Positions 6,541 through 8,450 of a stretch of DNA of 64,000 nt are shown piece by piece. The DNA is from Ottowia beijingensis (GTDB taxonomy: Bacteria > Pseudomonadota > Gammaproteobacteria > Burkholderiales > Burkholderiaceae_C). Under the pieces are notes generated by a model. The model did not search any database. It worked only from the letters and a program-made list of their open reading frames with translations, and was not told the origin of the DNA. The stretch covers positions 1,240,001 to 1,304,000 of the forward strand of contig NZ_JACCKX010000001.1 in NCBI RefSeq assembly GCF_013423955.1, given 5' to 3'. A program made the translations under genes and the position numbers. Positions within the stretch are counted from its first letter, which is position 1, and each line of letters starts with the position of its first letter.

Positions 6541-8450
6541 TCAAGTGTCCTGATTGTCCGCACTCTGCTGCAGCGCCCACATGCGCGCATAGCGCCCGTG
6601 CGCGGCCAGCAGCGCGAAGTGCGTGCCGCGCTCGATGATGCGGCCGGCCTCCATCACCAGGATTTCGTGCGCATCGACCACGGTGGACAGCCGGTGCGCG
6701 ATGACCAGCGTGGTCTTGCCGCGCGCGGCGCTGCGGATCTCGGCCTGGATGGCGCGCTCGTTGGCCGAATCGAGCGCACTGGTGGCCTCGTCGAAGATCA
6801 GCACCGGCGGGTCCTTCAGCAGCGTGCGGGCGATGGCCACGCGCTGCTTCTCGCCGCCGGAGAGCTTCAGGCCGCGCTCGCCCACCATCGTCGCGTAGCC
6901 CCTGGGCGTGCTCATGATGAAGTCGTGGATGTGCGCGGCGCGCGCGGCCTGCTCCACCTCGGCATCGGTGGCGTCGGGCCGGCCGTAGCGGATGTTGTAG
7001 GCCACCGTGTCGTTGAACAGTACCGTGTCCTGCGGCACGATGCCGATGGCGCGGCGCACGCTGGCCTGCGTGACGCTGCGGATGTCCTGGCCGGCGATGA
7101 GGATGCGACCGCCGCCGATGCCGGGCCGCCCCAAGTCGGCGGCAGCCCACTCGGGGGCAGCGCAGCATGCGAAGCAGCGGAGCGTGGGGGCGCGTTACCG
7201 ACGTCGTAAAAGCGATAGAGCAGTCGCGCCAAGGTGGACTTGCCCGAGCCAGACGGCCCCACCACCGCCACCGTCTTGCCGGCTGGAATCTCGAAGCTCA
7301 CGTCGTGCAGGATTTGGCGCGCCGGCTCGTAGGCGAAATCGACATGCTCGAAGCGCACGTCCACCGGGCCGTTGGTGTGCAGTGCCTCGGCGCCGGGCGC
7401 GTCAGCCACCTCGCGCTCGCGGTCCATCAGCGTGAACATCTTGTCCAGGCCGGTCAGGTTCTGCTTGATCTCGCGGTAGATCACGCCCAGGAAGTTGAGC
7501 GGGATGTAGAGCTGGATCATGAAGGCGTTGACCATCACCAGGTCGCCCAGCGTCAGCCGCCCATCCACCACGCCCTGCGTGGCGCGCCACAGCATGGCCA
7601 CCAGGCCGATGGCGATGATGAGCTGCTGCCCGGTGTTCAGCACCGACAGCGAGGTTTGCGCCTTCAGGCGCGAGCGGCGCAGCTGCTCCAGGCTTTCGTC
7701 GTAGCGGCGCGCCTCGAACTCCTCGTTGTTGAAGTACTTGACGGTCTCGTAGTTCAGCAGCGAATCGATGGCCTTGGTGTGCGCGGCCGAGTCGTACAGG
7801 TTGGCCTCGCGCCGGAACTTGGTGCGCCACTCGGTCACCGTCACGGTGAACACCACGTAGCAAACCAGCGCCGCGCCGGTGATCCAGGCAAAGCCGGCGT
7901 CGAACTTCACGGCCAGGATCGACAGCACCATCGCCACCTCGATGATCGTGGGCACGATGGAATACAGCGAGAACGACACCAGAGATTCGATGCCGCGCAC
8001 GCCGCGCTCGATGTCGCGCGTCATGCCGCCGGTCTGGCGCTCCAGGTGAAAGCGCAGGCTCAGGCTGTGCAGGTGCTCGAAGGTCTGCAGCGCGATCTGC
8101 CGGCTGGCGCCCTGCGTGGCCTTGGCGAACACCAGTTCGCGCAGCTCGGTGAAGGCGCTGGTCATCAGCCGCAGCGCGCCGTAGGCCAGCAGCAGGCCGA
8201 CCGGCACCACCAGCAGTGCCGCCGGGTCGCCGGGCTTGAGCGTCATGCGGTCGATCAGCTCCTTCAGCAGCAGCGGCACGCTGACGTTGGCCACCTTGGC
8301 GCCGATGACGAACAGCAGCGCCGCCGCCACGCGCCACTTGTATTGCCACAGGTAGGGCAGCAGGCGCCCCAGCGTGCGCCAGTCGGAGCGCGGCCCGCTG
8401 GGCGCCTCGGCAACAGGAAGGGAACGGGACAAATCGCGGCCACCGCGCAT
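6541..8450 (-). CDS. ATM1-type ABC exporter (fused permease-ATPase) with an in-frame repeat insert
   Basis: This is a half-size exporter of the ATM1/HMT1 group, which export glutathione- or sulfur-linked compounds and metals across the inner membrane. The N-terminal half has several hydrophobic helices and the group signature YFNNEEFEARRYD. The ATPase half shows Walker A GPSGSGKST, Q-loop IVPQDTVLFND, signature LSGGEKQRVAIART, Walker B PVLIFDEATSALD and the H-loop IAHRLST. Between Walker A and the Q-loop an 83-base dispersed repeat (7115-7197) interrupts the gene. If one missing C in its CCCCC run is restored, the insert is 84 bases and adds 28 codons in frame. The ATG at 8450 is preceded by AAAGAGA; a TTG at 8459 is possible. 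Total length would then be about 636 residues. Confidence 0.85.
7115..7197. repeat. family E dispersed repeat inside the exporter ATPase domain
   Basis: The inserted stretch contains GAGCGTGGGGGC and CCCCAAGTCGGCGGC, a block that I recognise as recurring between genes in Comamonadaceae genomes. CCGA occurs at both junctions (7115-7118 and 7198-7201), as expected for a short target-site duplication. Removing one copy rejoins YDVG to GGRILIAGQD, the normal loop between the first helix and next strand of an ABC ATPase. Confidence 0.75.

What the first reader, a model, noticed from the sequence alone, without database searches (positions are those of the whole stretch)
7115..7197. Dispersed repeat inserted in frame into an ABC exporter ATPase domain
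The 83-base insert lies between Walker A and the Q-loop, in the loop that joins the first helix to the next strand. Both junctions carry CCGA, fitting a small target duplication. If the one-base loss in its CCCCC run is restored the insert is 84 bases and adds 28 codons with no stop. This recalls the palindromic elements of Rickettsia that enter genes in frame. If real, a repeat is making protein here, in a loop known to tolerate insertions.
Basis: partly seen in the sequence, partly recalled or inferred. Interest (0 to 1): 0.72.

Follow-up and report, generated by a model that had tools for sequence, protein, structure and literature searches.

The report
Palindromic repeat coding inside bacterial proteins
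A small folded DNA repeat has landed inside a transporter gene here, and relatives of this bacterium carry the same repeat in the reading frame of many proteins, so a dispersed repeat seems to be adding loops to working proteins.

Summary
Real, and larger than reported. The insert in an ATM1-type ABC exporter is a copy of a palindromic repeat (model span 7106-7191, minus strand): 12 copies in its genome, 496 matches in 24 of 29 Ottowia genomes, present in 95 of 150 family genomes. Ortholog comparison gives a net 83 bases. The CCGA 'target duplication' is not supported: one CCGA lies in the element's own stem.

In relatives the repeat does sit in coding frame. Of 130 sampled sites (best-scoring, not random) 62 run in frame through a coding gene, in both orientations; outside the window's genome 60 of 60 open sites are in frame. 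Hosts include ValS, HrpA, LigA, Fmt and TrpA; empty orthologous sites in valS and hrpA show insertions of about 27-28 residues. One other Ottowia species has a decayed in-frame copy in this same exporter loop.

The window copy is out of frame as assembled. Entry and exit frames match those of in-frame copies, and this assembly shows many frame changes, so an assembly indel seems likelier than a dead gene. The repeat is probably the published Beta-proteobacterial repeat element (BRE, not aligned); the behaviour resembles Rickettsia palindromic elements.

The parts
7106..7191 (-). palindromic repeat copy, full model length 1-87, same strand as the gene
   Evidence: covariance model built from 27 other copies, 81.6 bits, E 2e-10, best of 12 in its genome. 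Alone it folds at -52.5 kcal/mol, z -3.0, 1 of 200 shuffles as good, but that minimum-energy fold pairs the 3' arm differently from the consensus; the slightly different stretch 7115-7205 gave only z -1.48, 19 of 200
7111..7199 (-). stretch between the conserved YDV and GR of the loop; 83 bases longer than the six bases of the basal loop
   Evidence: ortholog loops
7110..7119 (-). 3' arm of consensus hairpin 3, containing the CCGA that was read as a target duplication
   Evidence: consensus structure with covariation in other copies; place in the window read by eye
7202..8459 (-). exporter 5' part: ABC membrane domain and Walker A
   Evidence: PF00664 E 4.8e-40 and start of PF00005 E 2.1e-9; dN/dS about 0.20-0.27 against five orthologs
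6541..7107 (-). exporter 3' part: Q-loop, signature LSGGEKQR, Walker B; in another frame than the 5' part
   Evidence: PF00005 profile positions 40-137, E 6.3e-18; dN/dS about 0.19-0.25 against five orthologs

Best explanation
The insert is a copy of a roughly 84-87 base palindromic repeat, dispersed through the family to which Ottowia belongs and probably the one named BRE in 2011. It lies in the loop after the Walker A helix of an ATM1-type ABC exporter, on the gene's own strand. Shown: in relatives this repeat sits in frame inside many genes, on either strand, where it reads as about 28 residues rich in Pro, Ala, Gly and Ser; orthologs with empty sites in valS and hrpA show that these are insertions. 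Inferred: insertion is not aimed at frame; copies that keep the frame and fall in tolerant loops survive, out-of-frame copies are purged, and the often open frames and net length near a multiple of three make survival likely. Inferred: in the living organism of the window the exporter is probably in frame, because the frames at entry and exit are the ones used by in-frame copies elsewhere and the frame is lost only inside the element, in an assembly that loses frame elsewhere too. How the element moves is unknown.
For: Repeat family: 24 of 29 Ottowia genomes, 496 matches by summing the per-genome column; 95 of 150 family genomes, own included; 90 of 141 genera. Structure: 91.3% of 669 cells paired against 83.3% in shuffles, covariation 0.249 against 0.121, 0 of 500 shuffles; in 45 copies from in-frame loci 96.8% paired, covariation 0.350 against 0.098, 0 of 500 (that alignment was fitted to the model). 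In-frame class: 62 of 130 sites, in 20 of 23 genomes; 65 of 91 sites whose flanks code on one strand are in phase (p 1.3e-13), 62 of 65 open sites are in frame (p 3.5e-26), 60 of 60 without G000. These p values overstate, since some sites are the same place in several species. Insertion shown by empty orthologs: valS site A occupied in 2 of 17 genomes read, site B in 4 of 24; hrpA 5 of 27. Same exporter loop in G006: profile match E 4.3e-5, ORF 656 aa without stop. Assembly: 19 frame changes in 48 gene comparisons for the window (5 of the 19 are the exporter itself, 2 are repeats or paralogs) against 5 in 87 among relatives.
Against: The assembled window gene is out of frame, and no reads were available. 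In the own genome only 2 of 5 open sites are in frame, which could also mean real gene decay. No translation product was observed; expression is inferred from open frames and conservation. Sites were taken from the best-scoring matches, not at random. Gene position was judged by a codon-usage model plus Pfam on 20 proteins. No mobilising enzyme was found and target duplication is not demonstrated. The single-copy fold of the window element does not reproduce the consensus hairpins. The structural setting of the loop was not modelled (12 busy answers).
Confidence: 0.78

Rival explanations
1. The insertion or a later single-base change has really killed this exporter gene in this organism: a young pseudogene caused by the repeat.
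For: As assembled the net length is 83 and the frame changes. Three of the five open sites in this genome are out of frame. Completeness is only 89%, which fits decay as well as assembly error.
Against: Both ends of the element join the gene in the frame that in-frame copies use; the downstream half is intact with dN/dS about 0.19-0.25, though a young pseudogene would show the same. Frame changes of single-base type occur in other conserved genes of this window (5348, 11922-11934, 15130), each seen with at least two reference genomes. No out-of-frame open copy was found among 60 sites in 19 other genomes.
Confidence: 0.22
2. The inserts are useful: selection favours the proline and glycine rich loops as linkers, or the hairpin in the mRNA as a regulator, so copies are kept for a benefit.
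For: Hairpin pairing is kept inside coding copies. The same loops are occupied in several species: valS site B in four genomes, hrpA in five, and a cobQ-like site in Ottowia G010 and Acidovorax temperans. Of 29 sense copies 28 use one reading frame.
Against: Most genomes read at valS and hrpA have the empty site. Pairing could reflect youth or palindrome-correcting mutation. The G006 exporter copy has lost part of its 5' half and hairpins yet stays in frame.
Confidence: 0.2
3. The stretch is a native length-variable loop that resembles a repeat by chance.
For: The loop varies in length among Ottowia orthologs; 8 of the 20 orthologs without the repeat have unrelated extensions.
Against: Best of 12 hits in the genome of a model built without it; profile match E 6.1e-16, though that profile includes this copy; twelve orthologs have the basal loop.
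Confidence: 0.01

Closest known systems
Beta-proteobacterial repeat element (BRE), PMC3110155
   Same: Unit of 75-91 bp, tandem arrays with few or no bases between units, hosts in Comamonadaceae, many copies in a Polaromonas and few in Acidovorax; the authors noted that some repeats lie entirely within coding sequences (section 14 read). The present model finds 16 and 96 in two Polaromonas genomes and 4-6 in three Acidovorax or Paracidovorax genomes.
   Different: The text gives no sequence, so identity is inferred, not aligned. Its Rhodoferax strain has 4 copies, the two here 76 and 37. Its Bordetella copies average 69% GC; the 45 Ottowia copies have 67-89%. BRE is described as usually intergenic; here about half of the sampled sites are coding. 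That section reports no in-frame rule, no empty-site comparison and no covariation.
Rickettsia palindromic elements (RPE) and Wolbachia palindromic elements
   Same: Dispersed palindromic repeats inserted in frame in conserved protein genes (passages in PMC2229807, PMC10969869, PMC3733652; Wolbachia only as a cited title).
   Different: RPE are about 105-150 bp, in obligate intracellular bacteria (same passages); here about 84-87 bases, GC-rich, coding on both strands, in a family with many cultured isolates. No sequence comparison with RPE was made.
Correia/NEMIS and ERIC elements
   Same: Short repeats with open frames fused to genes (passages).
   Different: Both are listed there with terminal inverted repeats and target duplications; neither was demonstrated here.
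PARCEL (PMC2996958)
   Same: Palindromic DNA coding 25-residue tandem repeats (abstract).
   Different: Amphipathic tandem repeats in ORFs lacking assigned function, not inserts in housekeeping enzymes.

Membership tests
BRE | unit of 75-91 bp, tandem with little or no spacing | tested here: met
   model length 87; head-to-tail copies such as G010 1298802-1298886 and 1298887-1298970
BRE | occurs in Comamonadaceae, with the published copy numbers | tested here: inconclusive
   14 of 14 named genomes chosen by me have it, 4 to 96 copies; the rank order fits for Polaromonas and Acidovorax, not for Rhodoferax; the published strains themselves were not searched
BRE | sequence match to the published BRE alignment | not testable with these tools
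   the alignment is in a figure and supplements could not be read
BRE | occurs in Bordetella | not tested
RPE-like protein-coding palindromes | palindromic, folds into hairpins | tested here: met
   consensus of many copies; the window copy alone prefers another fold
RPE-like protein-coding palindromes | inserted in frame in conserved genes that lack it in relatives | tested here: met
   valS and hrpA; 62 of 65 open sites in frame
RPE-like protein-coding palindromes | this window copy is in frame | tested here: not met
   as assembled the frame is lost inside the element
RPE-like protein-coding palindromes | insert is translated | not testable with these tools
   no proteome or ribosome data
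REP / RAYT | Y1 transposase gene flanked by the repeat | tested here: inconclusive
   0 profile matches in 20 loci, one for each of 20 genomes, about 1.5 kb each side or less; 20 of 52 PF01797 matches were looked at
MITE | target site duplication | tested here: inconclusive
Rfam families | match to a curated RNA family | tested here: not met
   no match over the element at E <= 1; none at E <= 0.5 in five further loci with copies
ATM1-type ABC exporter | closest solved homologs are ATM1/ABCB7 exporters | tested here: met
   the O. thiooxydans ortholog L051, not the window gene itself, matches ABCB25, ABCB7, ABCB6, ATM1 and 4mrn at E 1e-172 to 2.5e-156

The most novel reading that the evidence does not exclude
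BRE-type repeats act as a family-wide natural linker-insertion system: a palindromic element, often open in all six frames and near a multiple of three in net length, that has repeatedly added loops of about 28 residues to housekeeping enzymes at preferred sites, with hairpin arms that differ from site to site yet stay complementary inside coding sequence, so one stretch is kept both as protein and as nucleic-acid structure.
Probability: 0.55. Interest if true: 0.88.

Novelty: new variant of a known kind. Interest (0 to 1): 0.78.

Why it matters
In-frame palindromic repeats are best known from Rickettsia and Wolbachia, where small populations could explain tolerance of selfish DNA in proteins (my inference). 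Here the same pattern appears in a family with genomes of 2.4-7.4 Mb (genomes with matches), including cultured isolates, in enzymes known from other bacteria to be essential (recalled), on both strands, with occupied and empty orthologs in close relatives. That makes open questions testable: does such an insert cost anything, is it translated, is its structure under selection, how does it move? Annotators should also know that these loops are repeats.

Tried and rejected
Target duplication by CCGA: rejected, see the observation check. General target duplication: inconclusive. Link to Y1/RAYT transposases: none seen in 20 loci. Rfam: none. Plasmids: 2 records, Acidovorax temperans and Rhodoferax antarcticus; phages: none. 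Common origin of the window and G006 insertions: not resolved, since the exporter tree left both in an open fork. A first gene-position script that picked whole long ORFs was too lenient and was replaced (then 45, 46, 55). In one search, 25 of the 30 G010 loci looked in frame; after merging arrays and duplicate sites the count is 18 of 23, which is the figure to use. In one search one of three Acidovorax temperans hits looks like native sequence and should not be counted. Six-frame openness is only a modest excess: 108 of 192 copies against 1082 of 3840 letter shuffles. Peptide make-up explains the preferred sense frame (fewest Cys, lowest charge) but not clearly the preferred antisense frame. 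Structure modelling of the loop was not obtained: the folding machine was full at each of 12 attempts, all with the alignment A2 of proteins loci.

Full report
What was checked. The window lies in a genome of 4.29 Mb in 4 contigs, 89.25% complete. The genus name Ottowia comes from a same-genus genome, G011, whose 14,804-base contig and match coordinates are those of Ottowia thiooxydans DSM 14619 locus L051. The gene on the minus strand, 8459 down to 6541, has an ABC membrane domain, Walker A, and after the insert the rest of the ATPase domain in another frame. The ortholog in O. thiooxydans is closest to ATM1/ABCB7-like exporters of known structure, so I call this an ATM1-type exporter.

The insert is a repeat. 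A DNA search with the stretch found 14 matches in its own genome and matches in 22 of 41 genomes (own included), all of the one genus and none of the 16 from other families. A profile of 30 copies, the window copy included, matches the site at E 6.1e-16. A covariance model was then built from 27 copies without the window or G006 copies. It finds 12 copies in the own genome with the window copy best, 37 in the complete genome G010, 496 at E <= 1e-5 in 24 of 29 Ottowia genomes (column summed by me), matches in 95 of 150 genomes of the family (stricter filters), and in 14 of 14 named genomes of Ottowia, Acidovorax, Paracidovorax, Polaromonas, Rhodoferax, Hydrogenophaga, Curvibacter, Ramlibacter, Limnohabitans, Pelomonas and Pseudorhodoferax, 4 to 96 copies each. 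I chose those 14 from the 80 loci.

Anatomy. The consensus folds into three hairpins; 10 of the 12 pairs of hairpin 3 change on both sides in some copy. The 3' arm of hairpin 3 covers 7110-7119, so the CCGA at 7115-7118 is part of the element. The window copy folded alone is stable (z -3.0) but pairs this arm elsewhere. Upstream of the first base there is a weak A preference (71% of 130 sites at position -5). Several copies sit head to tail, units of 83-89 bases.

Empty sites at the exporter. In 22 Ottowia exporters, window included, twelve have the basal seven-residue loop, eight have unrelated extensions, and two carry the repeat: the window and G006. The G006 copy is decayed (profile E 4.3e-5; in the same scan a locus of Pseudorhodoferax soli has copies away from its exporter at E 1.5e-5 and 3.9e-4) but in frame in a 656-residue open frame. 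None of the 80 orthologs has a repeat match at this loop. Whether the window and G006 share one insertion is unresolved: both start after VGN, but the tree leaves them in an open fork and sites are reused elsewhere.

The general phenomenon. I fetched 98 regions, chosen from the best-scoring listed matches and merged by eye; roughly a dozen listed places, near contig ends or in arrays, were not fetched. With 12 own-genome loci (one gave no profile hit) and 30 G010 loci this gave 130 distinct sites in 23 genomes after merging arrays. A codon-usage model trained on 31,473 codons decided which frame codes on each side. Result: 62 sites in frame and open through the element (29 on the gene's strand, 33 on the other); 26 where the upstream gene stops before or in the element; 39 whose flanks do not both code on one strand; 3 open but out of frame. 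So about half of the sampled sites are coding and the rest mostly lie at gene ends or between genes. Of the 65 open sites 62 are in frame, against one third expected; without the window's genome it is 60 of 60, from 19 genomes. All three exceptions are in the window's genome, where five sites are open (chance of that split 2.3e-4). Some sites are the same place in several species (valS, hrpA and others), so they are not all independent insertions. Of 29 sense copies 28 use the frame that reads LPPEGA, and at least 28 of 33 antisense copies the frame that reads APSGGS (by pattern).

Which proteins. Pfam on 20 of these proteins names, among others, valyl-tRNA synthetase, a DEAH-type helicase, formyltransferase, tryptophan synthase alpha, NAD-dependent DNA ligase, pyrroline-5-carboxylate reductase, a Mur ligase, a biotin carboxylase, Sua5/YrdC, an AMP-binding enzyme, an E1-E2 ATPase and CobB/CobQ. 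Gene names such as hrpA, fmt, ligA are my reading of these hits. In valS, site A is occupied in 2 of 17 genomes read (63 residues instead of 36; G006 has 40 without the repeat) and site B in 4 of 24 (58-61 instead of 30-34). In hrpA, 5 of 27 genomes are occupied, 55-56 residues instead of 28-32. At valS site B the hairpin arms of the four genomes differ in concert (GGCCCC with GGGGCC, GACCCC with GGGGTC, GATCCC with GGGATC, read by eye). In 45 copies from in-frame loci pairing is 96.8% with strong covariation (the alignment was fitted to the model, which favours it). In other genera, 8 of 29 sites are in frame and 13 have a stop before, in or just after the element (28 loci given, one yielded no site). 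In the named genomes 6 of 17 sites are in frame, one of the six probably false and one of the 17 in O. thiooxydans.

The window copy. Its entry frame (PPRSAASHAALPP) and exit frame (RPG into GGGRILIAGQD, read) are both the frame used by in-frame sense copies; the frame is lost within the element. The two gene parts are about equally constrained. The assembly is suspect: proteins of five relatives aligned to the window give 19 frame changes in 48 gene comparisons, of which 5 are the exporter itself, 2 come from repeats or paralogs, and several are one place seen by more than one reference; eight comparisons among relatives give 5 in 87. I therefore think an assembly indel more likely than a dead gene, but cannot prove it.

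Mechanism. Most likely: a non-autonomous palindromic repeat inserts without regard to frame; genes with out-of-frame inserts are lost; in-frame inserts in loops survive and then decay, as in the G006 exporter. The insertion enzyme is unknown; no Y1 transposase link was seen in 20 loci, and target duplication remains open. Shown: dispersal, consensus structure, insertion at orthologous sites, frame keeping. Inferred: translation, neutrality, mobility, identity with BRE.

Literature. PMC3110155 (passages; section 14 in full) describes BRE with similar size, arrangement and hosts and remarks that some copies lie entirely in coding sequences. Reviews (passages only: PMC2229807, PMC10969869, PMC3733652) describe in-frame fusions of RPE, Correia and ERIC elements. 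Apart from these, my searches listed no paper on in-frame repeats in this family, judging by titles and abstract starts; one search listed 10 of 45 papers, and the library lacks most subscription journals.

Noticed in passing
window 6146-6317: Last about 55 residues of an amino-acid ABC transporter ATPase gene (family name is my reading); relatives have open frames of about 250 residues or more, so the gene is truncated or wrongly joined here.
   Followed up: partly
window 5348, 11922-11934, 15130: Frame changes of single-base type in conserved genes near G/C runs, each supported by at least two reference genomes; they suggest an indel-rich assembly.
   Followed up: yes
window 9129-9205, 21995-22071, 33893-34139, 43925-44000, 57871-57947: Another dispersed family, GTGGGAGCGGGCTTGCCCGCGATC with its inverted partner, resembling REP pairs (resemblance recalled).
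   Followed up: no
window 9460-9717: Three tandem copies of an 86-base unit, the third diverged, at the 3' end of a conserved minus-strand gene.
   Followed up: no
window 42969-43094 and 43764-43889: 126-base inverted repeats, 97% complementary, 669 bases apart; possibly an invertible segment.
   Followed up: no
L018, L019, L020, L022, L023, L027, L028, L131: The exporter loop is length-variable in Ottowia: these eight orthologs have extensions of 2-21 residues without a repeat match.
   Followed up: partly
L169 and L412; L166, L226 and L350: The same loop is occupied in different genera: a cobQ-like gene (my reading) in Ottowia G010 and Acidovorax temperans, and a permease gene in two Ottowia genomes and another genus.
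   Followed up: partly
G013 (unnamed Ottowia genome): Twenty Y1 transposase matches, some with equal scores, others seemingly split in two frames: perhaps a recent IS200-type expansion.
   Followed up: no
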